Part shown: piece by piece, positions 27,475-63,722 of the stretch | Layout: the number at the start of each line of letters is the position of its first letter | How positions within the stretch are numbered: the stretch's first letter is position 1 | NCBI RefSeq assembly: GCF_900143215.1 | Contig: NZ_FRDM01000001.1 | Location: forward strand, 1 to 64,000 | Direction of reading: 5' to 3' | Origin: Geodermatophilus obscurus | GTDB taxonomy: Bacteria > Actinomycetota > Actinomycetes > Mycobacteriales > Geodermatophilaceae | Length of the DNA: 64,000 bases | The notes under the pieces: generated by a model | The model's database searches: none | What the model was told of the DNA's origin: nothing | The model's input: only the letters and a program-made list of their open reading frames with translations | Translations under genes and position numbers: made by a program

Positions 27475-27672
27475 GGGACCCGTCCTCCCCACCCCTCGGA
27501 GGCGGACCCCGTCCTCCCCAGCCCACGGTGAGAAGGACCCCGTCCCCCTCACCGTGGAAGGACCTCGTCCTCACCCTTCGCGGGCTCAGGGTGGGACCCG
27601 GGACGAGGCCTGCGGCGAGCCTCTGGACGGGGCCGCCCTGGGCGGGGCCGGTGGGACCCCTGCAGGGGGCCG
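27475..27672. repeat. dispersed palindromic repeat, composite array
   Basis: Several partial copies of the GGACCCCGTCCTCCCC repeat lie in a row, starting four bases after the stop of the response regulator, and end in CCCTGCAGGGGGCC. They fill the whole gap between two convergent genes and can form several GC-rich hairpins, so they could act as a bidirectional terminator. Confidence 0.8.
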
Positions 27673-27682
27673 CGGTGGTTCG

Positions 27683-28345
27683 TCAGCAGCCGGCGACGGT
27701 GCGCAGCTCGACCACCAGCTCGTGCGCGAGGACCCCGCGCCGGGCGTCCCGCGCGATGGCCCGGCAGACCGCGGCGACCTCCGGGTGGCCGAGCTGGGCG
27801 CTGGTGCCGGCCAGCGTGGCCGAGGCCCGGGCGAGGGCCACGGCGTCCCCGCTGCGGGCGCCGTCGGCGATGGCGGTGAGCCGGTCGGGCAGCGCGGCGG
27901 CGTAGCGCCGCTGCAGGCGGTCCGTGAGCTCGGCGTCGACGTCGTCGACCGGCCGGTGCCCGGCGTCAGGTGCCTGCCGACCGGGCGCCCGGCGGTCCAG
28001 CAGGTCCACCAGCAGGGTGACGCCGACGGACCTGGGCAGGCAGGCCAGGGCGCCGGCTTCGAGCACGGCGGCCCGGGCCTGCGGGTCGGTGTCGTCCGTC
28101 ACGGCGAGCAGGTGGGCGCGGCAGCCGACCAGCCGCAGGCGGCGCAGCAGGGCGGGCGCCTCGCCCACCGGACCGGCCAGGTCGGCGACCACCAGGTCCA
28201 GGTCCAGACGATGGGCCAGGCCGAGGGCGTCGCGGCTTCCGGCGGCTTCCCGCACGTCCCACCCGGTGACCCGCAGCAGGCCGGCGAGCGGCGCGCCGCC
28301 GGCTGCGTCGGCGCCGACGACGAGGGCCTTCGGGAGGGCGCTCAC
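27683..28345 (-). CDS. degenerate receiver-HPt protein
   Basis: The protein has 220 residues from the GTG at 28343-28345 (GGAGGACCAG upstream). Residues 1-~120 have the receiver fold (ALVVGADAAGG, LDLVVADLAGPVGE, CLPRSVGVTLLV). The phospho-acceptor Asp is kept, but the acidic pair is reduced and the conserved Lys is replaced. Residues ~150-215 resemble an HPt bundle (ARASATLAGTSAQLGHPEVA). In the signature AHTLKGSS the phospho-His is Ala. It is probably a non-phosphorylated adaptor or decoy in the pathway of the adjacent kinase. Confidence 0.65.
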   Translation of the reverse strand: MSALPKALVVGADAAGGAPLAGLLRVTGWDVREAAGSRDALGLAHRLDLDLVVADLAGPVGEAPALLRRLRLVGCRAHLLAVTDDTDPQARAAVLEAGALACLPRSVGVTLLVDLLDRRAPGRQAPDAGHRPVDDVDAELTDRLQRRYAAALPDRLTAIADGARSGDAVALARASATLAGTSAQLGHPEVAAVCRAIARDARRGVLAHELVVELRTVAGC

Positions 28346-28464
28346 GACTGGTCCTCCTCATCGGCCGGCCGCCGGGTGGAGAGCAGCTCTGACCCGCGAC
28401 GGCAACGACCCTGACCGCCCGGCCGCAGCCTCCCCGCCCGCCGACCGCAAGAAGTGCGCAAGAC

Positions 28465-28620
28465 GAAGGACCCCCTTACCCCCCGCCGTGGAAGGACCCC
28501 GTCCTCCTCACCCCTCGGAGAAGGACCCCGTCCTCCCCACCCCTCGCAAGCTCGGGGCGGGACCCGAGACGGGGTCGGAGCCTCGGGACGGGGCCTGCGG
28601 CGGGACCCGGCAAGGGGGCC
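28465..28620. repeat. dispersed palindromic repeat, three partial copies
   Basis: GAAGGACCCC occurs at the start of successive units; the last unit is complete (to GGGACCCGAGACGGGG) and is followed by a GGGACCCGGCAAGGGGGCC tail. The array lies between two co-directional genes, just after the stop of the histidine kinase on the minus strand. Confidence 0.8.
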
Positions 28621-28622
28621 GG

Positions 28623-29849
28623 TCAGCGGGGCAGGGTGAGGGTGAACGTGGTGCCCTGACCCTCGATGCTGCTGACCTCGAGGGTGCCGTCGTGCGCGGC
28701 CGCGATGGCCCGGGTGATGGCCAGGCCCAGCCCGACGCCGGGCACCGCGTGCCGCCGGGCGGTCGAGGCGCGGAAGAAGCGGGCGAACAGCTGCGCCTGC
28801 TCGCCGGCGGGGATCCCGATGCCGGTGTCGCCGACCGCGAGCCGGGCCACGGGCACCGCGCCGTCCTGCGGGGCGTCGACGACCGCGCCGTCCGGCCGGC
28901 GCCAGGCCGCCCGCAGCGCCAGGGTGACCCGGCCGCCGGCCGGCGTGAACTTGACCGCATTGGAGACCAGGTTGTCGCAGGCCTGCCCGAGCCGGACGGC
29001 GTCACCGTGCACCACGAGGCCGCCGTCGGGCACGTCGACCGAGACCTCGACGCCGGACGAGCCCGCGGTCACCCGCACCGTCTCCTCGGCGGCGCGGACG
29101 ACGGCGGCCAGGTCGACGTCCCCGGGTTGCAGGCTGAACCGGCCGGCGTCCACCTGCGCGGTGAACAGCAGGTCCCCGACCAGGCGCAGCAGCCGCTGGG
29201 CGTTGCGCTCGACGGTGCCCAGGTACCGGCGGAGCTCCTCGCCCAGCTCAGGGTCGTCGAGGACGAGCTCCAGGTAGCCCAGGATCGAGGTCAGCGGGGT
29301 CCGCAGCTCGTGGCTGATCAGGCTCACGAACTGGTCCTTCGCGCGCTCGGTCGCCCGTGCCTCGGTCACGTCGGTGCCCACGAAGTTCCAGCCGGCGTGC
29401 ACGCCGCGGTCGTCGGTGCGCGGGGTCACCGTCACCGACACGGTGAGCTCGGTGCCGTCCGCGGCGACGCAGGTCCAGTCCCGGACGTCGCTGCCCTGCT
29501 CCTGCGCGGTGCCGACCAGCGCGGCGAGCCCGCCGCCGGCCTCCTCGAGCTCCTCGGGCAGGTGGAAGTCGGTGATCGACCGGCGGCGGACGACGTCGGC
29601 GCGGGGCAGGCCCAGCATCCGTTCGGCGCCGGGGTTCCACACGCGGACGACGCCGTCGACGTCGGTGCCGATGATCGACTGCTCGGTGACCGCGTCGATG
29701 ACGCTGGTCATCGTCCGCGCCCGCGCCTGCAGCATCCGGGTGGCGACCTCCAGCTCGCCGTCCCGGTGCTGCATCCGGGCGCGCAGCGCGGCGTTCTCCG
29801 CGCGCAGCCGGGTCAGTTCCTCGGCCGGCGCGGGTTCGAGGACGGTCAC
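28623..29849 (-). CDS. PAS-domain histidine kinase
   Basis: The protein has 408 residues from the GTG at 29847-29849, which overlaps the TGA of the preceding mini-receiver gene (GTGA). A short coiled coil (residues 10-45) leads to a PAS domain (IIGTDVDGVVRVWNPGAERM). HisKA follows with the phospho-His in SLISHELRTPLTSILGYLEL, then HATPase_c with N box (DNLVSNAVKFTP), G1 (VGDTGIGIP) and G2 (GVGLGLAI). There are no membrane helices, so it is a cytoplasmic sensor. It is a likely partner of the OmpR-type regulator on the opposite strand. Confidence 0.9.
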   Translation of the reverse strand: MTVLEPAPAEELTRLRAENAALRARMQHRDGELEVATRMLQARARTMTSVIDAVTEQSIIGTDVDGVVRVWNPGAERMLGLPRADVVRRRSITDFHLPEELEEAGGGLAALVGTAQEQGSDVRDWTCVAADGTELTVSVTVTPRTDDRGVHAGWNFVGTDVTEARATERAKDQFVSLISHELRTPLTSILGYLELVLDDPELGEELRRYLGTVERNAQRLLRLVGDLLFTAQVDAGRFSLQPGDVDLAAVVRAAEETVRVTAGSSGVEVSVDVPDGGLVVHGDAVRLGQACDNLVSNAVKFTPAGGRVTLALRAAWRRPDGAVVDAPQDGAVPVARLAVGDTGIGIPAGEQAQLFARFFRASTARRHAVPGVGLGLAITRAIAAAHDGTLEVSSIEGQGTTFTLTLPR

Positions 29850-30013
29850 GGGGTCGCTCCGGCGAAGAGCTCGTGCACCCGGGCGACCAGCCCGGCGACG
29901 GAGCAGGGCTCGGCCGGGTGGGCGTCCGCGCCGGCCCCGCGGACGGCCGGACCCGCCAGTGCCCGGATGTCGTCCTCGGCGGCGACCAGGACGCGCGGCG
30001 CTGCGGTCGGCAC
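29846..30013 (-). CDS. mini receiver-like protein
   Basis: The protein has 55 residues from the GTG at 30011-30013. It reads VLVAAEDDIRALAGPAVRG then SVAGLVARVHELFAG, which resembles the first and last parts of a receiver domain fused without the central phospho-Asp strand and the Lys strand. It is coupled by a 4-base overlap to the histidine kinase. It may be a degraded receiver or a short partner protein of the kinase. Small size leaves some doubt that it is translated. Confidence 0.5.
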   Translation of the reverse strand: MPTAAPRVLVAAEDDIRALAGPAVRGAGADAHPAEPCSVAGLVARVHELFAGATP

Positions 30014-30231
30014 GAGTCGGCTCCCTCGCTCGGGCGGTGTCGTCCTGGTGGACGTCGGCGCCCTCCTGCCCGCGCTGCAGCCGGCCCGGCGCGGCCTCAC
30101 CCCAACAGGGGACCGGACGCACGCGCGCCCCGCCGGGAGGACCCGGCGGGGCGCGGTGACCGACTGGAACGGCCGCCCTCCAGGGGCCCGCGCCGATCCT
30201 GCGAGGCGGGGGGAGGAGGGTGGTCCTTGCG

Positions 30232-30900
30232 TCAGCTGCCCGACTGGCTCTGCACCGTCTGACGGGACTGCTGGGCCTGGCCCTGGACGTCCTGCGCGGC
30301 GGACTGGCCCTCCTGCTTGACGGTCTGGGCGGCGTCCTGCGCGGTGGACTTGACCTCCTCGACGGCCTGCTGGGCGGCCGGCCGCAGCTGCTCGCCGACC
30401 TCCTGCGCGGCCTGCTTGGCCGGGGCGAGGAGCTCGTCCTTGTGCTCGCGAACCGTGGACTCGGCCTGCTGGGCCAGCTGGCGCTCCCGCTCCGAGGCCG
30501 GCAGCAGGCTGGAGACCAGCCAGCCGACGCCGAAGGCGATGAGGCCCGCGGCCAGCGGGTTGCCCTGGGCCTGCCGGACGATGGTGTCCGGGGCCTGTTG
30601 CACGGCGTGCGCGGCCTGCTGCGCGGCGCCCTGCACGGACTCGGCGGCGCCCTGCGCCCGGTCCTGGACGGTGCCCGCGACGTCCTGCGTCCGGTACTGG
30701 GCCGAGGCCCGGGTGTCCTGGGCGCTGCCCATGACCCGGTCCTTGACCCGGGAGACGCGGCCCTTGGCCGCGCTGACCCGGCGGTCCATGACGCGAGAGG
30801 GGTTCACCTTCTCGTTGAGGGCATCGACGTCGTAGCTCAGCTCGCGCTGGGTCTGCTCGATCTGCCGGCGGATGGCCTCGGGGTCGTTGCTCGTGGTCAT
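30232..30900 (-). CDS. DUF3618-family membrane-associated protein
   Basis: The protein has 222 residues. The N-terminus IRRQIEQTQRELSYDVDAL is the DUF3618 signature. Long Ala/Gln-rich helices follow. One hydrophobic segment (LAAGLIAFGVGWLVSSLLP, ~115-135) is followed by a second helical domain with regular AQ repeats, similar to LEA/apolipoprotein-like proteins. It is the last gene of a three-gene minus-strand group with a holin-X-like protein and another helical protein. A role in envelope or stress protection is inferred, not shown. Confidence 0.8.
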   Translation of the reverse strand: MTTSNDPEAIRRQIEQTQRELSYDVDALNEKVNPSRVMDRRVSAAKGRVSRVKDRVMGSAQDTRASAQYRTQDVAGTVQDRAQGAAESVQGAAQQAAHAVQQAPDTIVRQAQGNPLAAGLIAFGVGWLVSSLLPASERERQLAQQAESTVREHKDELLAPAKQAAQEVGEQLRPAAQQAVEEVKSTAQDAAQTVKQEGQSAAQDVQGQAQQSRQTVQSQSGS

Positions 30901-30940
30901 GTTCTGTACTCCGATGTCTGAGAGGGCCGCAGGGCCGTGG

Positions 30941-31468
30941 TCAGTTGGGCTTCAGAGCGCTGGGGACGTCTGAGAGCGTGTCCACGGTGCGCTCGGGCTT
31001 GGGGTTCACCTGCTGCAGCTTCTTCTTGCCCATGGAGAAGGCGACGGCGCCGACGATGGCCCACAGGGCGGCCACGATGAGCGCGGCCAGGCCGGCGTCC
31101 ATCACGTTCTCCAGCGCCCACCACAGGGCGTTGGAGAGGAAGAGCACCGTCAGGAACCCGGCGACCGCGGCCGCGGCCATCATGCCGGCGCCCTTGCCCG
31201 CCTTCTTGGCCTCGGCCTGGACCTCGGCCTTGGCGAGGGCGACCTCCTGGCGCATCAGCGTGGAGAGGTCCTTGGCCAGCTCGCCGAACAGCTGCCCGAC
31301 CGAGGTGCCCTCGACGTCGGGACGGCCCTCCGTCGTGGACGGCGTGCCCAGGTTCCCGCTGTGCTCGCCGTAGGCCTCGTCCGGGCCGACGGCGTAGTTG
31401 CCCTGGCCGTACGGGTCCTGGCCCTGCGGTGAACCGACCGGCGTGGCGCCGGAGTAGGGAGAGCTCAT
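30941..31468 (-). CDS. phage holin-like (holin-X/DUF1469) protein
   Basis: The protein has 175 residues. A disordered Gly/Tyr/Pro-rich start (~50 residues) leads to the helix ELAKDLSTLMRQEVALAKAE. Two adjacent membrane segments follow (MMAAAAVAGFLTVLFLSNAL and GLAALIVAALWAIVGAVAF). This is the layout of actinobacterial putative holin-superfamily-III/X proteins, which are chromosomal envelope proteins rather than phage lysis genes. It starts 4 bases downstream of the preceding gene and is likely co-transcribed with it. Confidence 0.8.
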   Translation of the reverse strand: MSSPYSGATPVGSPQGQDPYGQGNYAVGPDEAYGEHSGNLGTPSTTEGRPDVEGTSVGQLFGELAKDLSTLMRQEVALAKAEVQAEAKKAGKGAGMMAAAAVAGFLTVLFLSNALWWALENVMDAGLAALIVAALWAIVGAVAFSMGKKKLQQVNPKPERTVDTLSDVPSALKPN

Positions 31469-31472
31469 CGGG

Positions 31473-32309
31473 TCAGACCCCCTGACCGGGACGGCGGGTC
31501 GGGTCGTCCCAGCCGGCCGGGGTGGTCGGCGGAACGGCGGCGCCCGCGGGCGGGACGGTGCCGTACGGCGGCGGCGGGACGGGCGTGCCCGTGGTCGCCG
31601 CGCCGGTGGTCTCGTAGGACGTCGTCTCGGCGTAGCCGGAGTAGGCCGGCGCCGGGTCGACGTAGTTGGTCTGCGTGTAGTCGGTCCGGTACTGCTGCTG
31701 CGAGCCCGTGGACGACGAGTTGTCGCTGTGCGCGGCCTTCACGCCGCTGGTGAGCCGGCCGGCGAGGACACCGGCGAGCGCGGCGCCGAGCAGGAAGGTG
31801 CCGGGCTTGCGGCGGGCGAAGGCGCGGACGTCGTCGAGCAGGTCGGCCGGCTCACGGCTCTGCAGCCGGTCGGCGAACTGCTCGACGTAGCTCGACGCCT
31901 GCTGGAGCAGGTCACGCGCCGGGCCGGGTGCGCCCTGGCTGCTGCCGTCGGCCAGGCCGCGCAGCTCCTGGGCCAGCGAGGACAGCCCGGTGGCGGCCTT
32001 CTGCTGCTGGGCCACGGTCTGCTGGCGCAGCTGCTGGCGCCCCTGGTGCAGCAGGTCCTGGGCCTGCCGCTGGGTCTCGTGGGCGACCTCCTTGGCCTGG
32101 TCGGCGGCGGTCGAGGCGACCTGGCTGCCGGCCTGGGCGGCGGTCTGGCCCACGTTGCGGGCCTCGTCCTTCGCCACGTCACTCGTGGACGGAGAGCCCG
32201 TCGACGTGGTGGTCGTGGTGGTCGTCGCGGTGGTCCCGCTGGTTGCGCTGGTCGCGCCCGTGCCGGTGGAGGGCGGCGGCGGGAACGGAGCGTCGATGGA
32301 GTGAGTCAT
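31473..32309 (-). CDS. helical low-complexity membrane protein
   Basis: The protein has 278 residues. A Thr/Ser-rich start is followed by an amphipathic Ala/Gln-rich region (QVASTAADQAKEVAHETQRQ). A conserved segment with one hydrophobic helix follows (RKPGTFLLGAALAGVLAGRL, ~175-195), then a Tyr/Pro/Gly-rich tail. It is first in the three-gene group with the holin-like and DUF3618 proteins. All three combine long helices with one or two membrane spans, so a shared envelope structure is plausible. No enzymatic motif. Confidence 0.7.
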   Translation of the reverse strand: MTHSIDAPFPPPPSTGTGATSATSGTTATTTTTTTSTGSPSTSDVAKDEARNVGQTAAQAGSQVASTAADQAKEVAHETQRQAQDLLHQGRQQLRQQTVAQQQKAATGLSSLAQELRGLADGSSQGAPGPARDLLQQASSYVEQFADRLQSREPADLLDDVRAFARRKPGTFLLGAALAGVLAGRLTSGVKAAHSDNSSSTGSQQQYRTDYTQTNYVDPAPAYSGYAETTSYETTGAATTGTPVPPPPYGTVPPAGAAVPPTTPAGWDDPTRRPGQGV

Positions 32310-34879: not shown

Positions 34880-35290
34880 ATGGCGGTCTCCAACCGCGTC
34901 CGCAGCGCCCTGACGACGACGGTGCTGGCGACCGCGGCCACCGGGTTCCTCGCCGCCTGCGGAACGGACGAGGAGGAGCAGGAGCAGGTCGCCTACTGCA
35001 CCAACGAGGACGGCGAGATCGTCGACGACGACTACTGCGACGACGGCTACCGCGGCCCCGGCGCGGGGCTGTTCTTCCTGTACCTCGGCGGCTTCCGCCC
35101 CGGCCTCCCGGTCGGCACCGTCCTCCCCGGCGGGGGCACCCGCATCAACCCCACCGACACGGCTGCCCGCCAGCGTGCCGGCCTGCCGTCGACCGGCAAG
35201 GTCACCGGGGGCACGCGGGTCACCGGCGGCATCGGCTCCGGCGTGGGCGGCCGCACCGGCACCGGCTCCGGCGTCGGCGCGGGCAGCTGA
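34880..35290 (+). CDS. secreted lipoprotein, Gly-rich
   Basis: The protein has 136 residues. A signal peptide ends in the lipobox GFLAACGTD (Cys at about 28). An acidic segment follows (CTNEDGEIVDDDYCDDGYRG), with two further Cys that could pair. The last ~40 residues are repeats of Gly, Thr and Val (KVTGGTRVTGGIGSGVGG), probably disordered. A repeat element begins right after its stop. Function unknown. It is the type of lipoprotein sometimes found next to glutathionylspermidine-synthase-like genes, as here. Confidence 0.75.
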   Translation: MAVSNRVRSALTTTVLATAATGFLAACGTDEEEQEQVAYCTNEDGEIVDDDYCDDGYRGPGAGLFFLYLGGFRPGLPVGTVLPGGGTRINPTDTAARQRAGLPSTGKVTGGTRVTGGIGSGVGGRTGTGSGVGAGS

Positions 35291-35348
35291 AGAAGGACCC
35301 CGTCCTCCCCACCCTTCGCAGGCTCAGGGCGGGACCCGGGACGGGGCC
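35291..35348. repeat. dispersed palindromic repeat, complete copy
   Basis: The copy starts with GAAGGACCCCGTCCTCCCC, has a TCGCAGGCTCA centre and ends GGGCGGGACCCGGGACGGGG. It begins immediately after the lipoprotein stop codon. Confidence 0.85.
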
Positions 35349-36642: not shown

Positions 36643-37127
36643 ATGCCGTTGGAGGGTGAGTACGAGCCGAGTCCCGAGGCCAGGGTGCGCGAGCAGTAGA
36701 AGGACCCCCTGCCCCCCGCGACTCGCGAGCTCGCCGCGGGACCCTGCAGGGGGCCGACACGCTGCGCGACACCGGGATCCCGATCGCGGTCTTCTGGACC
36801 CGCGGTGCGCGGACCGGGAAGGTGCGCAAGAACGGCTTGATGCGGGTCGAGCACGAGGGCGCCTACGCGATGGTCGGCTCGCAGGGCGGCGCTCCCAAGG
36901 ACCCGGCGTGGGTGGCCAACCTCCGTCGGCACCCCGACCAGGTGACCGTGCAGGACGGGTCCGAGCCGTGGGACGGCGTGGCCCGCGAGGTGACCGGCGA
37001 GGAGAGGCGGCAGTGGTGGGAGCGGGCCGTCGAGGTCTGTCCCGAGTACGAGCGGTACCAGCAGCGCACCGACCGGGAGATCCCGGTGTTCGTCGTCGAG
37101 CGGGCCGACCCGGTCAGCCCGGCATAG
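36643..37127 (+). pseudogene. deazaflavin-dependent oxidoreductase (DDN-like), disrupted by repeat element
   Basis: The start ATG at 36643 gives MPLEGEYEPSPEARVREQ and then TAG at the left edge of a palindromic repeat. After the repeat, in a different frame, the protein resumes: TLRDTGIPIAVFWTRGARTG, then GLMRVEHEGAYAMVGSQGGA and TDREIPVFVVERADP. These are the conserved parts of F420H2-dependent nitroreductase/quinone reductase proteins. The segment normally between them (VELYE...GTEG) is missing and replaced by the ~59-base repeat. The C-terminal part alone (from about 36822) could still be translated. Confidence 0.75.
36697..36755. repeat. dispersed palindromic repeat, copy inside a gene
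   Basis: It starts TAGAAGGACCCCCTGCCCCC, has an ACTCGCGAGCTCG centre and ends GGGACCCTGCAGGGGGCC. This is the CTGC subtype. It replaces part of a deazaflavin-oxidoreductase gene and supplies the stop codon. Confidence 0.85.
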
Positions 37128-39893: not shown

Positions 39894-40535
39894 GTGCGGG
39901 CAGCGGACTGGGATGCGCGCTACGCCGCGCAGCAGCAGTGGTCGGCCGAGCCCAACGCGCTGGTCGCCGAGCTGCTCGCCGATCTGCCGCCGGGCACCGC
40001 GGTCGACCTGGCGGCGGGGGAGGGGCGGCACGCGCTGTGGCTCGCCGGACGCGGCTGGGAGGTCACCGCGGTCGACTTCTCCGCCGCCGGGCTGGCCCGG
40101 GGGCGCGAGCGGCCCGGTGCCGACCGCGTCACCTGGGTGACCGCCGACGTCCTCGCCTGGAACGCCCCGCCGGGCTCGCTGGACCTCGTGCTGGTCGCCT
40201 ACCTGCACCTGCCGGAGGCCGAGACGACGGCGCTGCTGCGCCGCACGGTCGGCTGGCTGCGGCCCGGCGGGCGGCTGCTCGTCCTCGGCCACGACGCCGA
40301 CAACGTCGCCCACGGGGTCGGCGGCCCGCAGGACCCCGCCATCCTGCACAGCGTCCCCCGGCTGGCCCCGGTGGCCGAGCTGCTCGACGTCGACCGGCTG
40401 GAGCAGGTGCGCCGGCAGACCCCGGCCGGCACCGCGCTGGACACCCTGCTGTGGGGGCGGCGCAGCGGCGGGTGGAGGACCCCCTGCCCCCCGCTCGCGG
40501 GCTCGCGGCGGGACCCTGCAGGAGGCCGGCGGTAG
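39894..40535 (+). CDS. SAM-dependent methyltransferase with repeat-derived C-terminus
   Basis: The protein has 213 residues from the GTG at 39894. It starts WDARYAAQQQWSAEPNALVA, has motif I VDLAAGEGRHALWLAGRGW and the TAVDFSAAGLARG end of beta-2, followed by LDLVLVAYLHLP. This pattern is that of tellurite-resistance (TehB)-like or ubiE-like small methyltransferases. The natural end is probably DTLLWGRRSGG. The last ~20 residues (WRTPCPPLAGSRRDPAGGRR) are encoded by a palindromic repeat copy. Confidence 0.8.
   Translation: MRAADWDARYAAQQQWSAEPNALVAELLADLPPGTAVDLAAGEGRHALWLAGRGWEVTAVDFSAAGLARGRERPGADRVTWVTADVLAWNAPPGSLDLVLVAYLHLPEAETTALLRRTVGWLRPGGRLLVLGHDADNVAHGVGGPQDPAILHSVPRLAPVAELLDVDRLEQVRRQTPAGTALDTLLWGRRSGGWRTPCPPLAGSRRDPAGGRR
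40474..40528. repeat. dispersed palindromic repeat, copy overlapping a gene end
   Basis: GGAGGACCCCCTGCCCCCCG to GCGGGACCCTGCAGGAGGCC, the CTGC subtype also seen at 36.7 kb. It lies within the reading frame of the methyltransferase and delays its stop codon to 40533-40535. Confidence 0.85.
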
Positions 40536-49961: not shown

Positions 49962-50119
49962 CAGAGGACCCCGTCCTCCCCACCCTTCGCTGGCTCAGGG
50001 CGGGACCCGGGACGGGCCGCCCCTGCCCCCGCCACCCGCAGCAGAAGGACCCCGTCCTCCCCAGCCTCGCAAGCTCGGGCCGGGACCCGGAACGGGGCCA
50101 GGGTCCCTGCAGGGGGCCG
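49962..50119. repeat. dispersed palindromic repeat, two copies and a tail
   Basis: Copy one (49962-50016) begins right after the peptidase stop. Copy two (50044-50099) begins GAAGGACCCCGTCCTCCCC. A CCCTGCAGGGGGCC tail follows, leading into GTTCCAGCACGTCACC, a string seen again at 58.59 kb. Confidence 0.85.
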
Positions 50120-50188: not shown

Positions 50189-51112
50189 ATGGGGCACGGG
50201 CACGACCACGGCGTCCCCGCGGGAACCGCCTCGGCCGCGTACCGCCGCCGGCTGGCCGTCGTCCTCGGGCTCACCGTCGCGGTGGCCGTCGCGGAGATCG
50301 CCGGCGCGGTGGTCTCCGGGTCGCTGGCGCTGCTCGCCGACGCCGGGCACATGGCCACCGACGCCGTGGGCATCGGTCTGGCGCTCGGGGCGGTGTCCCT
50401 GGCCCAGCGGCCCGCCCGCGGACGGCGCACCTTCGGCTGGCAGCGCGCGGAGATCCTCGCAGCCGTCGCCAACGGCCTGCTGCTGGTCGCCGTCGCCGGC
50501 TACGTCGTCGTGGAGGCCGTCCGCCGGATCGGGGACCCGCCGCAGATCGACGCGGGCGTGGTGCTCGCCGTCGCCGCGGTCGGCCTGGTGGTCAACCTCG
50601 CCGGCCTGGCGCTGCTGCATGCCGGCCGGTCCCGTTCCCTCGCCGTCCGGGGCGCCCACCTCGAGGTGCTCGGCGACGCGCTGGGATCGGTCGCCGTCCT
50701 CGTCGCCGCCGTCGTCGTCGCCACCACCGGCTGGACGCCGGCCGACACCGTCGCCTCGCTGCTCATCGCCGCGCTGGTGCTGCCGCGGGCGTGGTCGCTG
50801 CTGCGCGAGGCGGTCGACGTGCTCCTGGAGGCCGCGCCGCGCGGGGTGGACCTGGACCAGGTGCGGGCGCACGTCCTCGGGGTGGACGGCGTCGTCGGCG
50901 TCCACGACCTGCACGCCTGGACGATCACCTCCGGACTGCCGGTGCTCTCCGCACACGTCGTCGTCAGCGACGAGGCGCTGGCCGACGGCCACGGCGGACG
51001 GGTGCTCGACGCGCTGTGCGCCTGCCTGGGGGACCACTTCGACGTCGAGCACTGCACCTTCCAGCTGGAGGCCGAGACGCACGCCGGCCACGAGGCGCCG
51101 GTCCACGAGTGA
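50189..51112 (+). CDS. cation diffusion facilitator (CzcD-like metal exporter)
   Basis: The protein has 307 residues from the ATG at 50189; a GTG one codon before is possible. A His-rich start (GHGHDHG) leads to six membrane helices. The metal-binding motif of helix II is LADAGHMATDAVG and that of helix V is HLEVLGDALGSVAVLVAAVV. FGWQRAEILAAVANG is the CzcD subgroup signature. The cytoplasmic C-terminal domain ends in a His-containing stretch (HAGHEAPVHE). It exports Zn2+, Cd2+ or Co2+ in exchange for protons. It is alone, bracketed by repeats. Confidence 0.92.
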   Translation: MGHGHDHGVPAGTASAAYRRRLAVVLGLTVAVAVAEIAGAVVSGSLALLADAGHMATDAVGIGLALGAVSLAQRPARGRRTFGWQRAEILAAVANGLLLVAVAGYVVVEAVRRIGDPPQIDAGVVLAVAAVGLVVNLAGLALLHAGRSRSLAVRGAHLEVLGDALGSVAVLVAAVVVATTGWTPADTVASLLIAALVLPRAWSLLREAVDVLLEAAPRGVDLDQVRAHVLGVDGVVGVHDLHAWTITSGLPVLSAHVVVSDEALADGHGGRVLDALCACLGDHFDVEHCTFQLEAETHAGHEAPVHE

Positions 51113-51115: not shown

Positions 51116-51205
51116 TGAAGGGCCACCCTTCCCCCCGCGCCTCGTAGAAGGACCCCGTCCTCCCCACCCTTCGCAGGCTCAGGGCGGTGCCCTGGACGGG
51201 GCCAC
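51116..51205. repeat. dispersed palindromic repeat, complete copy plus partial
   Basis: A short GAAGGGCCACCCTTCCCCC hairpin at 51118 is followed by a complete copy from GAAGGACCCCGTCCTCCCC (51147) to CCTGGACGGGGCCAC. It begins four bases after the CDF stop codon. Confidence 0.85.
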
Positions 51206-56735: not shown

Positions 56736-58487
56736 GTGACGATCGCACCGGCGCCGATCGTGAGCCGGCCGAGCCCGGTTCACCAGGCGGAGAAGGGCTC
56801 GCGGCTCTCGAACCTGCTGCGGACCACCGACCACAAGACCATCGGCCTGATGTACACGGCCACCTCCTTCGCCTGGTTCGTCATCGGCGGCCTGATGGCG
56901 ATGCTCATGCGCGGGGAGCTGGCCCGGCCGGGGCTGCAGTTCCTGTCGCCGGAGCAGTACAACCAGCTGGTCACCATGCACGGCACGGTGATGCTGCTGT
57001 TCTTCGCGACGCCGCTGTTCTTCGCCTTCGGCAACCTGATCATGCCGCTGCAGATCGGTGCACCCGACGTCGCCTTCCCGCGGCTGAACGCTTTTTCCTA
57101 CTGGCTGTTCCTCTTCGGCTCCACCCTCGCGGTGTCCGGTTTCTTCACCCCCGGCGGGGCCGCCGACTTCGGCTGGTACGCCTACACCCCGCTGTCCCTG
57201 GGGACCCACAGCCCCGGCGCCGGCGCCGACCTGTGGATCGCCGGCCTGGCGGTCAGCGGTCTGGGCACGATCCTCGGCGCGGTCAACTTCATCACCACGA
57301 TCGCCTGCCTGCGGGCGCCGGGCATGACGCTGTTCCGGATGCCGATCTTCACCTGGAACACGCTGGTCACCAGCCTGCTGGTGCTCTTCGCCTTCCCGAT
57401 CCTCACCGCCGCCCTGTTCGGCCTCCTGGCCGACCGGCAGCTGGGATCCCTCATCTACTCGGAGGAGAACGGGGGGCCGATGCTGTGGCAGCACCTGTTC
57501 TGGTTCTTCGGGCACCCCGAGGTCTACATCATCGCGCTGCCGTTCTTCGGCATCGTCACCGAGATCATCCCGGTGTTCAGCCGCAAGCCGCTGTTCGGCT
57601 ACAAGGGCATGGTGTTCGCGACCCTCGCGATCGGTGGCCTGTCGCTGACGGTGTGGGCGCACCACATGTACGCCACCGGTGCGGTGCTGCTGCCGTTCTT
57701 CGCCTTCCTGACCTACCTGATCGCCGTGCCCACCGGCATCAAGTTCTTCAACTGGATCGGCACCATGTGGCGCGGCCAGCTGACCTTCGAGACGCCGATG
57801 CTGTTCTCGATCGGCTTCATGGTCACCTTCCTCCTCGGTGGGCTGACCGGCGTGCTGCTGGCCAGCCCGCCGCTGGACTGGCACGTCAACGACAGCTACT
57901 TCGTCGTGGCGCACTTCCACTACGTGGTGTTCGGGACGGTCGTCTTCGCCGCCTACGCCGGGATGTACTTCTGGTTCCCGAAGATGTGCGGCCGGATGAT
58001 GGACGAGCGCCTGGGCAAGCTGCAGTTCTGGATGACGTTCATCGGCTTCCACGGCACGTTCCTGGTGCAGCACTGGCTCGGCGGCGAGGGCATGCCGCGC
58101 CGGTACGCCAACTACCTGGCCAGCGACGGGTTCACCACGCTGAACACGGTGTCGACGATCTTCTCGTTCATCCTCGGCGCCTCGATCATCCCGTTCATCT
58201 ACAACGTGGCGAAGTCGTGGCGGTACGGCCGCCTGGCGCTGCGCGACGACCCCTGGGGCCACGGCAACTCGCTGGAGTGGGCCACCTCGTCCCCGCCGCC
58301 GCGGCACAACTTCACCGAGATCCCGAAGATCCGCTCCGAGCGGCCGGCGTTCGAGGCGCACTACCCGCACCTCATCGAGCGCCTGCAGAACGAGGCGCAC
58401 GCGGGCAAGCGGCACGAGCCGTACGCCGGCGAGCTCGGTGGCACCGGCGGCCGACGGCAGGGGCCGAACGACCCCGACCCGACCTGA
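56736..58487 (+). CDS. ctaD: cytochrome c oxidase subunit I
   Basis: The protein has 583 residues from the GTG at 56736. It has 12 helices. Heme a ligand His is in [10 protein letters not shown]. The Cu(B) set and cross-linked Tyr are in FFGHPEVYI and [20 protein letters not shown] carries the heme a3 and second heme a ligands. It is the catalytic subunit of the aa3 oxidase. Other subunits are not here. ctaD next to serB matches the arrangement in Mycobacterium tuberculosis (Rv3043c-Rv3042c). A repeat begins right after the stop. Confidence 0.95.
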
Positions 58488-58605
58488 TCAAGGACCCCTC
58501 GCCCCCCACGCCGCGCCGGCCCCCTGCAGGGTCCCGGCGCGAGCTTGCGAGTGTCGGGGGGCAAGGGGTCCTTCTGCTGTGAAGGGGCCGTTCCAGCACG
58601 TCACC
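58488..58605. repeat. dispersed palindromic repeat, partial forward and complete reversed copy
   Basis: A partial forward copy (AAGGACCCCTCGCCCCCC) is followed by a complete copy in reverse, GGCCCCCTGCAGGGTCCC to GGGGTCCTTCT (58529-58573). GTTCCAGCACGTCACC follows as at 50.12 kb. The block starts at the ctaD stop. Confidence 0.85.
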
Positions 58606-58702
58606 TGACGTCCCGCCGGTCTCGACCGGCGGGGCGTCGCCGCGTCCGGGGCCGGTCCGGCGCCCGGGCCGGTGGCAGGACGCCGGAGCGCGGTGCGGGA
58701 GG

Positions 58703-59971
58703 ATGGCTGTCGTGCCGCTCGACCCCGCTCCCCGGACGTCCCCGCCCGCCGTGTCCACCCCACGGGCGCTGCTGACCGTGTCCGGGGGCGATCGGCCGGG
58801 GGTCACCGCGCGACTGTTCGCAGCCCTCGCTGCGCCCGGGGGAGGGCTCCCGCCGGTCGAGGTGGTAGACGTCGAGCAGGTCGTCGTCCACGGTCAGCTG
58901 GTGCTCGGCGTGGTCGTCGGGTCACTGCCGGCGGAGGGTGGCCCGGTGGCGGAGGAGCTCTTCCTCGCCGCGCTGGAACGACTGGCCGCAGACGTCGCGG
59001 AGGCGACCGGGGTGCGGGTGCAGGTGGAATCGGCCGCCGACGCCGGCCTGGACGCCGCCCCCGACGGCCGGCCGCACCACGTCATCCTGCTCGGCCGTCC
59101 GGTGCCACCCGAGGCCGTCGCCGGAGCCGCCTCGGCCATCGCGGGCATCGGCGGCAACATCGACGCCATCCGCCGGCTCTCGGACTACCCGGTGACCAGC
59201 TTCGAGCTGACCGTCTCCGGCGCCGAGGCAACCGAGCTGCGCACCGCGCTGGCCACGATCGCCTCGAGGAGCAGCGCCGACATCGCCGTCGAGCAGGTCG
59301 GCCTGGCCCGCCGCAGCAAGCGGCTCATCGTGCTCGACGTCGACTCCACCCTCGTCCGCGGCGAGGTCATCGACGAGCTCGCCGCCCGCGCCGGGCGGGC
59401 CGCCGAGGTCGCCCGGATCACCGCCGCCGCGATGAACGGGGAGCTGGACTTCACCCAGTCGCTGCGGGCCCGTGTCGCCGCGCTGGAGGGGCTGCCGGTC
59501 GATGTGCTCGAGGAGGTCCGCGAGGCCCTCGTGCTGACCCCCGGCGCGCGCACCCTCATCCGCACCCTGAAGCGACTCGGGTTCCGCTGCGGCATCGTCA
59601 GCGGCGGCTTCACCCAGATCACCGACCCGCTGGCCGAGCAGCTCGGCCTGGACTTCGCCGCCGCCAACACCCTCGAGGTCGCCGACGGGCGGCTGACCGG
59701 GGGCCTGGTGGGGGAGATCGTCGACCGCGCCGGCAAGGCCCGCGCGCTCGCCCGCTTCGCCGACCGGTACGGCATCCCGCTGGACCAGACCGTGGCCGTG
59801 GGCGACGGCGCCAACGACCTGGACATGCTCAACGCCGCCGGGCTGGGCATCGCCTTCAACGCCAAGCCCTACGTGCGGGAGCAGGCGCACACGGCGCTCA
59901 ACCAGCCCTACCTCGACGCGGTGCTGCAGGTGCTCGGCTTCACCCGCGACGAGGTCCTGGACGCCGTGTGA
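58703..59971 (+). CDS. serB: phosphoserine phosphatase
   Basis: The protein has 422 residues. Two ACT-like regulatory domains (residues ~20-100 and ~105-180) precede the HAD phosphatase. The catalytic motif is VLDVDSTLVRGEVIDELAAR (Asp nucleophile, Asp acid), followed by FRCGIVSGGFTQI (motif II, S), AGKARALARFADR (K) and AVGDGANDLDML (motif IV). It makes serine from phosphoserine. The length with two ACT domains is like SerB2 of mycobacteria. It is probably feedback-regulated by serine through the ACT domains. Confidence 0.93.
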   Translation: MAVVPLDPAPRTSPPAVSTPRALLTVSGGDRPGVTARLFAALAAPGGGLPPVEVVDVEQVVVHGQLVLGVVVGSLPAEGGPVAEELFLAALERLAADVAEATGVRVQVESAADAGLDAAPDGRPHHVILLGRPVPPEAVAGAASAIAGIGGNIDAIRRLSDYPVTSFELTVSGAEATELRTALATIASRSSADIAVEQVGLARRSKRLIVLDVDSTLVRGEVIDELAARAGRAAEVARITAAAMNGELDFTQSLRARVAALEGLPVDVLEEVREALVLTPGARTLIRTLKRLGFRCGIVSGGFTQITDPLAEQLGLDFAAANTLEVADGRLTGGLVGEIVDRAGKARALARFADRYGIPLDQTVAVGDGANDLDMLNAAGLGIAFNAKPYVREQAHTALNQPYLDAVLQVLGFTRDEVLDAV

Positions 59972-60080
59972 TCCGTCGGCCCACCGGCCGACACCGTGGC
60001 CACGTGCCACCAACTGCCGGGAACCCGGGCGCTGCCGAGGCGTGGGAACGCCGGCTTGACCGCAGTCGGCGCGCCGCGCC

Positions 60081-60656
60081 TCAGCCCGCGCGGTGGACGG
60101 TGCCCTCCAGCTGGACGCCGGCGGTGCGCAGCTGGTCGAGAGCGGCGTCGGTGGTGGCCTCGCTGACGCCGGCGGTGAGCGGCAGCAGCACCCGCGTCGC
60201 GAACCCCTCGGCGACGGCGTCGAGCGCGGTCGCCCGCACGCAGTGGTCGGTGGCGATGCCGACGACGTCCACGGCGTCCACGGCGTGCGTGCGCAGCCAG
60301 TCGGTCAGGGGGACGCCGTCCGAGCGCCCCTCGAAGCCGGAGTAGGCCGCGGCGTACTCGCCCTTGTCGAACACCGCCTCGATGGGCTCGCGCTCCAGCC
60401 GAGGGTGCAGCTCGACGCCGTCCGTACCGACGACGCAGTGCGCCGGCCAGGTCTCCAGGTAGTCCGGCTCCTCGGCGAAGTGGCCGCCGGGGTCGACGTG
60501 GTGGTCGCGGGTCGCCACCACGTGCGCGTAGTCGGCGGCGTGCGCGCGGACGTGCGCGCTGATCGCGGCGGCGACGTCCGCTCCTCCGGCGACGGCGAGA
60601 CTGCCGCCCTCGCAGAAGTCGTTCTGCACGTCCACGACCAGCAGGGCGCGGCTCAT
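60081..60656 (-). CDS. pncA: nicotinamidase
   Basis: The protein has 191 residues from the ATG at 60654-60656. The isochorismatase-fold residues are Asp (VVDVQNDFCEGG), the metal site D-x-H (TRDHHVDPGGHF) and the catalytic Cys in VGIATDHCVRATALDA, with Lys in AVFDKGEY. It hydrolyses nicotinamide to nicotinate and also activates pyrazinamide. pncB starts upstream on the same strand and ends 11 bases before it. The pair forms an NAD-salvage operon. Confidence 0.92.
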   Translation of the reverse strand: MSRALLVVDVQNDFCEGGSLAVAGGADVAAAISAHVRAHAADYAHVVATRDHHVDPGGHFAEEPDYLETWPAHCVVGTDGVELHPRLEREPIEAVFDKGEYAAAYSGFEGRSDGVPLTDWLRTHAVDAVDVVGIATDHCVRATALDAVAEGFATRVLLPLTAGVSEATTDAALDQLRTAGVQLEGTVHRAG

Positions 60657-60667
60657 CGATGTCCTCC

Positions 60668-61951
60668 TCAGGCCGTCAGCGTCTCGATGGCGCAGTCCCC
60701 GCGGGACAGCGCGAACGCCTCGGCGGGCATCGCCCCCCGCGCCCGCTCGTGGTGTGCCCGCGCGGCGGCCAGCGCCTCGCGCGGCGTGGCCGGCGCGCAC
60801 ACCTCGCCGCCGCGGACCAGCTCGACGAGCAGCGGCCGGTCGCCGTCCCGGGGCAGGACCGCCTCGTTGCTCACCACCTCGGCGGTCGCCGTTCCGGAGG
60901 CGTCGTGCCGGCGGACGGCGGACTTGCGTCCGCCCACCGACGGCTTGCCCAGGGACCGCTTGGCCACCGGGACGCCGTCGCGCTCCACCAGCTTGTAGAC
61001 CATGCCCATCGTCGGTGCGCCGGAGCCGGTGACCAGGGCCGTCCCGACGCCGTAGCCGTCGACCGGCGCGGCCATCAGCCCGGCGATCGCGTACTCGTCG
61101 AGGTCGCTGGTGACGATGATCCGCGTGCGGGTGGCGCCGAGCTCGTCGAGCAACTCGCGGGCGTGAGCGGCGAGGGTGGGCAGGTCACCGGAGTCCAGCC
61201 GGATCGCGCCGAGCTCCGGGCCGGCGACCTCCACCGCCGTGCGGATGCCCTGGTCGACCTCGAAGGTGTCCACCAGCAGTGTCGTGCCGACGCCGAGCGC
61301 GGCGACCTGGGCGCGGAAGGCCGATTCCTCGTCGTCGTGCAGCAGGGTGAAGGCGTGCGCGCTGGTGCCGGTCGTGGGCACCCCGTACCGGCGGCCGGCC
61401 TCCAGGTTCGAGGTCGAGGCGAAGCCGACCAGGTACGCGGCGCGGGCGGCGGCGACCGCGGCCTCCTCGTGGGTGCGCCGCGAACCCATCTCGATGCACG
61501 GCCGCTCGCAGGCGGCGGTGACCATCCGCGCCGCGGCGGAGGCGATCGCGCTGTCGTGGTTGAGCACCGAGAGCACCAGCGTCTCCAGCAGCACCCCCTC
61601 GGCGAACGGCGCCCGGACGGTGAGGACGGGGGAGCCGGGGAAGAACAGCTCGCCCTCGGCGTAGCCGTCGACGTCCCCGCTGAAGCGGAACCCGGCCAGC
61701 CAGTCCAGCAACCGGGGGTCGGTGAGCCCCTGCTCGCGCAGCGCGGCGAGGTCCTCGTCGGTGAACCGGAAGTCGGGGAGCGCCTCCAGCAGCCGGCCGG
61801 TGCCGGCGAGCACGCCGTAGCGGCGGCCGTGCGGCAGCCGCCGGGCGAAGACCTCGAACACGCAGTCGCGGTCGGCGGTGCCGTCGGCCAGGGCCGCGGC
61901 GACCATGGTCAGCTCGTACCGGTCGGTGAGCAGGGCGGGACCCGTCGGCAT
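60668..61951 (-). CDS. pncB: nicotinate phosphoribosyltransferase
   Basis: The protein has 427 residues from the ATG at 61949-61951. The start LLTDRYELTMVAAALADG is conserved, as are EMGSRRTHEEAAVAAARAAY, GTSAHAFTLLHDDEESAF and RLDSGDLPTLAAHARELLDE. It joins nicotinate and PRPP to nicotinate mononucleotide with ATP. It is the upstream partner of pncA. It diverges from clpS, as pncB1 does from clpS in M. tuberculosis. Confidence 0.93.
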   Translation of the reverse strand: MPTGPALLTDRYELTMVAAALADGTADRDCVFEVFARRLPHGRRYGVLAGTGRLLEALPDFRFTDEDLAALREQGLTDPRLLDWLAGFRFSGDVDGYAEGELFFPGSPVLTVRAPFAEGVLLETLVLSVLNHDSAIASAAARMVTAACERPCIEMGSRRTHEEAAVAAARAAYLVGFASTSNLEAGRRYGVPTTGTSAHAFTLLHDDEESAFRAQVAALGVGTTLLVDTFEVDQGIRTAVEVAGPELGAIRLDSGDLPTLAAHARELLDELGATRTRIIVTSDLDEYAIAGLMAAPVDGYGVGTALVTGSGAPTMGMVYKLVERDGVPVAKRSLGKPSVGGRKSAVRRHDASGTATAEVVSNEAVLPRDGDRPLLVELVRGGEVCAPATPREALAAARAHHERARGAMPAEAFALSRGDCAIETLTA

Positions 61952-62015
61952 GGTCCCGGAGCCTAGGCGGGGCCGCCGGGGGCCACCGCTCGGACGGTTC
62001 TCCTAGAGTGGAGCC

Positions 62016-62312
62016 GTGGCCGGACCACTCGCGCCGACACGGACGCCGGAGGAGACCGTCGAGGAGCACGGCGACCTCGACCGACCCTGGGTCACCATCG
62101 TCTGGAACGACCCGGTCAACCTCATGACCTACGTGACCTACGTGCTGCAGGAGCTGTTCGGCTACGACGAGCCGACGGCGACCACGCTGATGCTGCAGGT
62201 GCACGAGGAGGGGAAGGCCATCGTGAGCTCCGGGCCGCGGGAGCGCATGGAGCACGACACCAGCCGGCTGCACGCCTACGGGCTGTGGGCCAGCTACCAG
62301 CGCGACGCATGA
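62016..62312 (+). CDS. clpS: ATP-dependent Clp protease adaptor ClpS
   Basis: The protein has 98 residues from the GTG at 62016. The core is [20 protein letters not shown] and [20 protein letters not shown]; the N-D-x-x-N/M-T box binds N-degron substrates. It hands substrates with N-terminal bulky residues to ClpAP/ClpCP. The next gene overlaps by 4 bases (ATGA). Confidence 0.93.
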
Positions 62313-62806
62313 GGCCGTTCCGCCGCAAGGGCAGCGAGCTGGTGGCCCGGCTGGAGCCGGCCGAGGCCCGCATCCTCGCGCTGCTGCTCGACCAGCTCGA
62401 GCAGCTGCTCACCGCCGACGCCGAGGACGTCGCCGGCGACCCGGTGGTCGACCGGCTGCTGCCCGCCGGCCACCGCAGCGATCCGGAGCTGGCCGCCGAC
62501 TACCGCGAGCTGACCGAGGCATCTCTGCGTGCGGGGAAGGCCGACGACCTGGCCACCGTCCGCGCCGCCCTGCCGCCGGACGGCGGGACCGTCCGGCTGG
62601 ACCCCGAGCAGGCGACCGCCTGGCTGCGCACCAGCAACGACCTGCGCCTGGCGCTGGGCACGCGGCTCGACATCCAGGAGGACACCGAGCCGCCGGAGGA
62701 CCTCGCCAGCGAGGAGGGGCAGCAGCTGGCCGTCTACTACTGGCTCACCGGTCTGCAGGGATCGCTCGTCGACGCACTGGCCGCCGGGCGCGCCGGCCGA
62801 AGGTGA
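62309..62806 (+). CDS. DUF2017 protein
   Basis: The protein has 165 residues from the ATG at 62309, overlapping the clpS stop. [20 protein letters not shown] and [20 protein letters not shown] lead to [20 protein letters not shown] and [16 protein letters not shown]. It is always next to clpS in actinobacteria (Rv1332 in M. tuberculosis). Its biochemical role is unknown. Its 3' end overlaps the end of a convergent gene. Confidence 0.85.
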
Positions 62807-63101
62807 GCACGATCGACGCCGCGAGCAGCAGGTCGAGCACGAAGAAGACCGACACCAGGCCGGGCATCTCCAGGTCCTGCACGACCGCTCCGACGGCGCT
62901 GACGAGGACGACCAGCGAGAGCGCCCCGACCAGCAGCAGCGTCAGCAGGCGGCCGGTCACCAGCAGCACCAGCGAGATCCGGTCGGCGGTGACGTCGCTG
63001 CTGTAGTGGCCGCTGCGGAGGCGCAGCCCCCGGACGCCGCCCACCAGCGCGGGCACCGCCACGGCCAGCACCCCGGCGGTCATCAGCAGCTCCAGGACCA
63101 T
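62745..63101 (-). CDS. small multi-span membrane protein
   Basis: The protein has 118 residues from the ATG at 63099-63101. It has about three membrane helices ([58 protein letters not shown]) and a basic tail. No domain recognised. It overlaps the end of the DUF2017 gene by 62 bases and interrupts an otherwise co-directional clpS-mec-cysO run. Promoter region contains a reversed repeat copy. Confidence 0.65.
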   Translation of the reverse strand: MVLELLMTAGVLAVAVPALVGGVRGLRLRSGHYSSDVTADRISLVLLVTGRLLTLLLVGALSLVVLVSAVGAVVQDLEMPGLVSVFFVLDLLLAASIVLTFGRRARRPVRRRAIPADR

Positions 63102-63120
63102 GAACGGGCACCGTATCGCC

Positions 63121-63174
63121 GGCCCCGTCCAGGGTCCCGCCCCGAGCCCGCGAGGGGTGGGGAGGACGGGGCCT
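63121..63174. repeat. dispersed palindromic repeat, reversed copy
   Basis: GGCCCCGTCCAGGGTCCCGC to GGGGAGGACGGGGCC, the reverse of the forward copies. It lies in the divergent space between the small membrane protein and mec, within about 20 bases of each start. Confidence 0.85.
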
Positions 63175-63189
63175 CCTAGACTGGTCGAC

Positions 63190-63663
63190 GTGCTGCGCAT
63201 CGACCGCGCGACCTACGACGCCATCGTGGCCCACGCCCGGGAGGACCACCCGGACGAGGCCTGCGGCGTCGTCGCCGGCCCCGAGGGCAGCGACCGCCCC
63301 GAGCGCTTCATCCCGATGCTGAACGCCGCGCGGTCGCCCACGTTCTACGAGTTCGACTCCGCCGACCTGTTGCGGCTGTACCGGGAGATGGACGACCGGG
63401 GTGAGGAGCCGGTGGTCATCTACCACTCCCACACCGCGACCGAGGCCCATCCCTCGCGCACCGACATCGGTCTCGCCTCCGAGCCCGACGCGCACTACGT
63501 CCTGGTGTCGACCCGCGTCCACGGGAACCAGACCGGCCTGGCCGGCGACGAGGTCGAGTTCCGCAGCTTCCGGATCGTCGACGGCGCCGTCACCGAGGAG
63601 GACGTCGAGGTCGTCGAGTCCTACCTGTTCGGCCACTCGCCGACCACCGTCGTCTACGACTGA
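63190..63663 (+). CDS. mec: Mec: JAMM/MPN peptidase (CysO-cysteine)
   Basis: The protein has 157 residues from the GTG at 63190. The JAMM zinc site is E (EDHPDEACGVVAG), H-x-H (VIYHSHTATEAHPSRTDI) with S/T and D following. DAHYVLVSTR is conserved too. In M. tuberculosis Mec (Rv1334) releases cysteine from CysO-cysteine in sulfur assimilation under oxidative conditions. CysO follows directly, confirming the assignment. Confidence 0.93.
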   Translation: MLRIDRATYDAIVAHAREDHPDEACGVVAGPEGSDRPERFIPMLNAARSPTFYEFDSADLLRLYREMDDRGEEPVVIYHSHTATEAHPSRTDIGLASEPDAHYVLVSTRVHGNQTGLAGDEVEFRSFRIVDGAVTEEDVEVVESYLFGHSPTTVVYD

Positions 63664-63722
63664 GGAAGGACCCCGTCCTCCCCACCCCTCGCCAGCTCGG
63701 GGCGGTGTCCTGGACGGGGCCG
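63664..63722. repeat. dispersed palindromic repeat, complete copy
   Basis: GAAGGACCCCGTCCTCCCC to CCTGGACGGGGCCG, beginning directly after the mec stop. The copy separates mec from cysO, which are adjacent without such a gap in mycobacteria. Confidence 0.85.

What the first reader, a model, noticed from the sequence alone, without database searches (positions are those of the whole stretch)
27475..63722. A dispersed family of ~55-60 bp GC-rich palindromes beginning at stop codons
Ten loci (27.5, 28.5, 35.3, 36.7, 40.5, 50.0, 51.1, 58.5, 63.1, 63.7 kb) share GAAGGACCCC, a TCGC-AGCTCG centre and GCGGGACCC...GGGGCC. Two subtypes exist (GTCCTCCCC/GGGACGGGG and CTGCCCCC/CCCTGCAGGGGGCC). At least six begin within four bases of a gene's stop codon; others are reversed between divergent genes or in tandem arrays. 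They look like REP/MITE-like elements that can double as terminators.
Basis: partly seen in the sequence, partly recalled or inferred. Interest (0 to 1): 0.75.

Follow-up and report, generated by a model that had tools for sequence, protein, structure and literature searches.

The report
Nested hairpin repeats abutting stop codons
This soil bacterium and its relatives carry hundreds of copies of a 57-letter DNA hairpin, many of them set to the base right behind the stop signals of genes or inside one another; they resemble known bacterial hairpin repeats, but the enzyme that usually moves such repeats was not found.

Summary
The window (a Geodermatophilus-like genome) has 12 copies of a ~57-bp hairpin; the genome has 191 to 294 by pattern, against 0 and 2 for reversed patterns. 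The genus ranges from 8 to 372, and 107 of 112 family genomes match. Core blocks are constant while stems vary with compensation (270 two-sided cells vs 73 shuffled; 25 stems in 73 copies). Placement is striking: 59 of 195 distinct copies start exactly 1 nt after a same-strand stop, 88 within 4 nt. Occupied are 71 of 837 YTGA stops, 2 of 518 RTGA stops, and 0 of 390 non-stop YTGA within 150 nt behind a stop. Other copies sit inside older ones. One orthologous site shows gain at a pre-existing stop with ~66 bp of target lost. Y1 (RAYT) transposase was found in 0 of 112 genomes, the IS1182-type domain in 1 of 10 high-copy genomes. Stems do not prefer G-U (37) over A-C (73), 0 of 173 copies have a T-tract, so a terminator role is unproven. 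Verdict: a new REP-like variant.

The parts
27474..27634 (+). nested array: left arms at about 27474, 27503 and 27532, inner element 27557-27610, right arm to about 27634; begins 2 nt after the TGA of the response-regulator gene
   Evidence: Pfam
28465..28620 (+). three nested elements: left arms 28465-28490 and 28491-28519, inner element 28520-28576, right arms 28577-28595 and 28596-28620 (arm limits read by eye)
35292..35348 (+). element 1 nt after the TGA of gene 34880-35290; same site occupied in G340, G412, G348 and L053
36699..36755 (+). element that stands in place of about 36 bp of a reading frame (start near 36643) and supplies an in-frame TAG (36697-36699); L051 has a like element at the same left junction
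40474..40527 (+). type 2 element at the 3' end of ORF 39894-40535; not seen at this place in the 15 relative sequences aligned
49963..50018 (+). element 1 nt after the TGA of the M23 peptidase gene
   Evidence: Pfam
50044..50099 (+). second element 82 nt after the same stop
51117..51146 (+). left arm of an older element (GAAGGGCCACCC type), 4 nt after the TGA at 51110-51112; its right arm is not recognisable by eye
51147..51203 (+). complete element in the former loop of that older element
58489..58577 (.). plus-strand outer arm after the TGA at 58485-58487 combined with an inverted (minus) element 58518-58574; folds into one long hairpin
63121..63176 (-). reversed element about 14 bp upstream of the called start of gene 63190-63663
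63665..63721 (+). element 1 nt after the TGA of the JAB-domain gene; three relatives (G340, G412, G348) have another stem type at the same stop

Best explanation
These are non-autonomous, REP-like mobile hairpin DNAs of the Geodermatophilaceae. Shown: a 57-bp unit with constant end, loop and junction blocks and a variable but self-complementary stem; hundreds of dispersed copies; many copies directly behind functional stop codons, mostly C-TGA-N-element, or with the element's own first bases completing the stop (T+GA, TA+G); copies nested in the loops of older copies; gain at an orthologous stop that already existed, with loss of about 66 bp of target. Inferred: copies move or are copied as DNA that folds into a hairpin; an enzyme not yet found recognises the palindrome and joins it to a short pyrimidine-TGA target; hairpin tips of existing copies are a second target, which gives the nesting; insertions that break open reading frames are mostly lost. 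Why real stop codons are used and the same letters further downstream are not is unexplained by this alone; either placement is coupled to translation or copies elsewhere do not persist.
For: Copies and reversed-pattern controls. Family-centred spread: 80 of 397 order genomes, 75 of the 80 in the same family. Stop anchoring. Pyrimidine before TGA: C in 93% of 87 occupied vs 58% of 1302 other TGA stops. The stop existed before: C-terminus unchanged in 32 of 34 discordant ortholog pairs. Gain: G340 (complete) and G152 (left half) carry an element at a stop where 20 other placed genomes have none; 4 of 26 could not be placed. Coding DNA replaced at 36699. Nesting: 38 of 194 vs shuffled mean 14.5, maximum 26. 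Pairing kept without G-U preference.
Against: No mobilising gene was found; only two transposase families were tested. No general target-site duplication. A sequence-specific transposase alone should also hit non-stop YTGA, yet 0 of 390 behind stops are occupied. Nine of 31 own/G340 sites are shared, so part of the set is old and vertically inherited. There is one clear gain site; at a second precise loss between short repeats is as possible as gain. The nesting control is loose because common stems match each other, and a few of the 38 (for instance own 63665, L051 16770) look spurious by eye.
Confidence: 0.6

Rival explanations
1. A functional 3'-end RNA element: the hairpin behind the stop codon slows ribosomes, terminates transcription or protects the mRNA, and selection keeps copies only at that exact place.
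For: Placement depends on a functional stop. Occupied stops are rare in tight gene pairs (0 of 237 overlapping co-directional pairs, 2 of 134 with gaps of 0-30 nt, 22 of 157 with 80-150 nt). One site is occupied in five species. In E. coli, REPs fewer than 16 nt from a stop lower translation (an earlier study, as reported in section 8 of PMC12306157).
Against: G-U cells (37) are not favoured over A-C cells (73) in the stems, although cells are not independent. No T-tract in 173 copies. Gene-specific strong hairpins remain downstream of 12 of 43 elements. Between own and G340, 22 sites differ and 9 are shared. Selection would have to tell +1 from +10 nt.
Confidence: 0.25
2. MITEs of an IS1272/IS1182-type element that replaces target stem-loops.
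For: Replacement of target DNA, lodging in hairpin tips, and no target-site duplication resemble the inverted-repeat-replacing mode described for IS1272 (passages of PMC5678879). One high-copy genome, G213, does carry the transposase domain over the cut-off.
Against: The domain PF13751 is found in 3 of 26 genus genomes (G213, G413, G414; over the cut-off only in G213) and in 1 of the 10 genomes with 200 or more copies; the window's genome, G340, G176, G416 and G410 have none. The replaced 36 bp at 36699 are not an obvious terminal inverted repeat.
Confidence: 0.06
3. Classical GTAG REPs moved by a RAYT (Y1 transposase).
For: Palindromic form, dispersal, 3'-end location and occasional GTAG at the left junction (GTA before the first G in at least 14 of 107 copies not at stops).
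Against: Y1_Tnp in 0 of 112 family genomes, while the control rings in 5 of 14 genomes; GTAG is not constant.
Confidence: 0.05
4. Generic GC-rich hairpins that look alike by chance.
For: Genome of 73% G+C in the window; one type 1 copy folds only 1.2 sd better than shuffles.
Against: Reversed-pattern controls of 0 vs 191 and 2 vs 294, covariation and exact spacing.
Confidence: 0.01

Closest known systems
REP sequences (GTAG and CGTC families), REPtrons/RAYTs
   Same: Short, dispersed extragenic palindromes, mostly 3' of genes; GTAG termini often supply a TAG stop and CGTC REPs lack a dedicated transposase (PMC3733652: abstract, passages, section 16)
   Different: 57 bp instead of 20-40; no constant GTAG or CGTC tag; no Y1 transposase detected in the family; variable stem inside constant blocks; exact 1-nt abutment to TGA; nesting in loops
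IS1272 / IS1182-type stem-loop-replacing transposition
   Same: Target DNA is lost on insertion; hairpins serve as targets; no target-site duplication (PMC5678879, passages)
   Different: Transposase domain in only 1 of 10 high-copy genomes; targets here are stop codons and loops, not whole inverted repeats
E. coli REPs within 15 nt of a stop codon (translation control)
   Same: Hairpin just behind the stop (PMC12306157, section 8)
   Different: Here the commonest spacing is exactly 1 nt after YTGA, and no effect on translation has been shown

Membership tests
REP (GTAG/CGTC) | High-copy dispersed extragenic palindrome | tested here: met
   longer than the 20-40 bp given in PMC3733652
REP (GTAG/CGTC) | Conserved unpaired GTAG or CGTC tag at one end | tested here: not met
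   junctions vary (TGAN, CGTG, CGTA, CGGA and others); the constant end is GAAGGACC
REP/RAYT system (GTAG) | RAYT (Y1_Tnp) gene in the genome | tested here: not met
   0 of 112 family genomes; own genome
MITE | Target-site duplication | tested here: not met
   58 copies; 148 stops; one site has 4-7 bp repeats ending in TGA
MITE | Parent IS with the same ends | not tested
   no systematic search for larger elements with these ends
IS1272-type target replacement | IS1182-family transposase (PF13751) in genomes rich in the element | tested here: not met
   3 of 26 genus genomes; 1 of 10 high-copy genomes (G213); none in the window's genome
Intrinsic terminator | Hairpin followed by a U-tract | tested here: not met
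   0 of 173 copies have four or more T in the 8 nt after GGCC, (195 distinct copies, 22 dropped for an unclear right end or short flank)
Intrinsic terminator | RNA 3' ends at the element | not testable with these tools
   no RNA data
Rfam family | Match above gathering score | tested here: not met
   0 matches in the window

The most novel reading that the evidence does not exclude
Placement of these elements is coupled to translation termination: they enter, or survive, at stop codons that ribosomes actually use, preferring a pyrimidine before UGA, by a route independent of known REP transposases. YTGA stops are occupied at least 20 times more often than the same four letters elsewhere in intergenic DNA (71 of 837 vs 5 of 1866 in all).
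Probability: 0.3. Interest if true: 0.85.

Novelty: new variant of a known kind. Interest (0 to 1): 0.6.

Why it matters
REP-like repeats are usually explained by a RAYT. Here is a large, apparently mobile, self-nesting family in an actinobacterial family with no detectable RAYT, and with base-exact placement at functional stop codons. It gives a tractable case for asking what moves RAYT-less palindromes and whether 3'-end hairpins are placed by insertion specificity or by selection on translation.

Tried and rejected
RAYT mobilisation: not supported for present genomes. Direct target-site duplication: no signal over shuffled pairings in 58 copies or in 148 occupied stops. TGA as a plain DNA target: rejected, non-stop TGA (9 of 3666 and 4 of 629 at +3) behaves like TGC (14 of 7860, 8 of 1278) and TGG (13 of 6536, 2 of 979) controls; refined to YTGA plus a functional stop. 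My first reading that TGA, TAG and TAA stops are used alike (89 of 1289, 10 of 159, 1 of 16 within 0-5 nt) needed correction: at exactly +3 TGA stops count 73 of 1355 and TAG stops 0 of 175, and TAG stops use offsets 1 and 4. The element supplying the stop: seen at 36699 but not in general. Presence in phage or plasmid collections: no match with one 65-base query. Rfam: none in the window. No structure prediction was made, since no protein is involved. Papers: outline with abstract, passages and section 16 of PMC3733652; passages of PMC5678879; outline with abstract, and section 8, of PMC12306157; all other papers only as search listings. No description of this family turned up in the listings of seven searches of open-licence PMC papers; subscription journals are not covered.
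Full report
WHAT IS THERE. The window is contig C48:1-64000 of a 5.24-Mb genome in 112 contigs; most of the nearest named relatives are Geodermatophilus species. In the genome there are 191 matches to a 23-mer with up to 3 mismatches and none to its reversal, 74 vs 3 for type 2, 152 to the model (the tool scored only 150 candidates, so this is a floor), and 294 vs 2 for a stem-independent pattern.

SPREAD. In 397 genomes of the order the model matches 80; 75 of the 80 are in the window's family and the other 5 have one to three matches each (over 40 genomes the tool uses stricter filters). With the 23-mer 96 of 112 family genomes match, with 5 to 251 copies in the genus. With the stem-independent pattern 107 of 112 match and the genus ranges from 8 to 372; matches of one or two in the most distant genera are no more than their reversed controls and should not be counted as real.

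STRUCTURE. On 150 of 164 matches (144 distinct rows) 93.7% of cells pair against 80.6% in shuffles; 270 cells changed on both sides against 73; with partners slid by 1 to 3 columns at most 16. That alignment was fitted to the model and cells are not independent events. A looser test by stem-independent pattern in 1.6 Mb gives 105 copies: 73 (69.5%) have a left arm matched at 8 or 9 of 9 bases by their own right part, against 18% with the right parts of other copies; these 73 have 25 different left stems. So blocks at the ends, the loop and the inner junction are constant while the stem varies with its partner. One-sided G-U cells (37) are fewer than A-C cells (73). A hairpin kept for its RNA on this strand would show the opposite, so the pairing constraint looks like one on DNA, or on the way copies are made. 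Folding energies of four single copies are modest to clear: z -1.2 and -2.6 for two of type 1, -3.7 and -3.5 for two of type 2; the inverted nest at 58.5 kb has -6.1, but the triple nest at 28.5 kb only -0.4.

POSITION. Genes were called with a simple codon-usage caller of my own; its stops are exact for real genes, its starts are not. In 864 kb there are 63 full copies: 46 of the 62 outside genes lie behind a gene on the same strand, 16 do not. In 2.57 Mb from several genomes there are 195 distinct full copies: 88 start within 4 nt of a same-strand stop and 59 exactly 1 nt after it; a second cluster at about 20-34 nt corresponds to one outer arm of a nested copy. AGGRCC begins 3 nt after the stop in 72 of 1464 stops, against 1.8 per offset further away. 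At exactly this offset TGA stops count 73 of 1355 and TAG stops 0 of 175; TAG stops use offsets 1 and 4 (8 and 5 of 190), where the element's first G completes the stop or extra bases intervene. Some matches at other offsets are chance AGGRCC and not elements. The base before an occupied TGA is C in 93% of 87, against 58% of 1302. YTGA stops are occupied in 71 of 837, RTGA stops in 2 of 518. Non-stop YTGA: 0 of 390 within 150 nt behind a stop (0 of 269 with at least 60 nt free, 0 of 121 without) and 5 of 1476 elsewhere in intergenic DNA, of which about three look like elements. Non-stop RTGA: 4 of 463 and 4 of 1868, mostly other palindromes. Left out of these counts were non-stop sites inside called genes or inside element hits, and sites within 300 nt of a stretch end. 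Both the letters and the function of the stop matter.

TURNOVER. Between own genome and G340 (90% DNA identity over one 4.2-kb stretch) 9 stops are occupied in both and 22 in one, of 243 ortholog pairs. In 32 of 34 discordant pairs over three relatives the C-terminus is the same, so the stop was there first. At one site (gene C48:65966-66922) 26 loci were read: four could not be placed (L244, L245, L247, L250), G340 has a complete element and G152 a left half directly behind the stop, and 20 have none; in G340 about 66 bp of intergenic sequence, of which its relatives share parts, are missing. This is gain, with loss of target. At another (gene C48:144276-145289) G348 has an element between two copies of CTGA, G152 a nine-base stump between GAGCTGA repeats, G308 a short remnant, G412 a degenerate hairpin, and own, G340, G410 and G418 the plain site; here gain and precise loss cannot be told apart. 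No target duplication shows up in general. At 36699 the element stands in place of about 36 bp of a reading frame that is uninterrupted there in G340, G412, G348 and several others, and creates a TAG; L051 has a like element at the same left junction, its right junction was not aligned.

NESTING. 38 of 194 copies have matching arms of another element around them, against a mean of 14.5 (maximum 26 in 200 shuffles) when flanks are exchanged; the control is high because common stems match each other, and a few of the 38 look spurious. The clear cases lose the loop of the outer copy (for instance L051 gene 7 against the window's copy at 30171). Inverted nesting also occurs (58489-58577).

WHAT MOVES IT. 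Y1_Tnp (RAYT) is found in 0 of 112 family genomes. PF13751 (IS1182-type) is found in 3 of 26 genus genomes, over its cut-off only in G213, which is one of the ten genomes with 200 or more copies; the other nine, the window's genome among them, have none. No match in the phage or plasmid collections. Other transposase families were not tested, so the mobiliser is simply unknown.

FUNCTION. Another strong hairpin follows 12 of 43 elements within about 120 nt, against 92 of 671 element-free stops. The 12 hairpins are gene-specific sequences, not elements; but stops with element-like motifs had been left out of the 671 only, and 5 of the 12 flanks hold such a motif, so the two rates are not strictly comparable. 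Insertion thus sometimes lies between the stop and a native terminator-like hairpin (gene 30232-30900 is the clearest case). None of 173 copies is followed by a T-tract. Occupied stops are rare where genes overlap or nearly touch. An effect on translation is possible by analogy with E. coli REPs close to stops but untested.

JUDGEMENT. It works like a REP/MITE family and is best described as a RAYT-less, REP-like variant; it is not filed as a GTAG or CGTC REP, as a RAYT-dependent REP, or as an IS1182 MITE, because defining features were tested and not met. The base-exact tie to functional stops is the part that the models considered here do not explain.

Noticed in passing
L051, L054, L055, L057 behind the ortholog of gene 34880-35290: A second hairpin class (CGAGATC...GATCTCG with a covarying middle) sits behind the same stop where the window has its element; a hybrid with AGGACC ends was seen in the own-genome sample.
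   Followed up: no
G412 and G348 stretches listed: Further palindromes (GGTGAGCCAGGACC type and GATCAGCT type) recur in intergenic DNA.
   Followed up: no
C36 about 25.8-31.9 kb and 61.4-62.2 kb; window 50.1 and 58.6 kb: A subset of elements is followed by GTTCCAGCACGTCACC (12 of 173 start with GTTCC), and this piece with the right half of the element forms short tandem arrays.
   Followed up: partly
window 36643-37127: A gene uninterrupted at this place in most relatives aligned is interrupted by the element at 36699; its remainder is called as a separate ORF.
   Followed up: partly
window 1-27400: No copy of the element in the first 27 kb at E <= 0.001 although 12 lie in the rest.
   Followed up: no
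L207 (G213), directly behind the stop of the ortholog of C48:144276-145289: What looks like a CRISPR array (repeats resembling GGCTCACCCCCGNGGGCGCGGGGAGCAC, by eye) begins a few bases after the stop codon.
   Followed up: no
window gene 30232-30900 and its orthologs: A strong hairpin GCGCCCCGCCGGG...CCCGGCGGGGCGC behind this gene recurs across the genera read.
   Followed up: no
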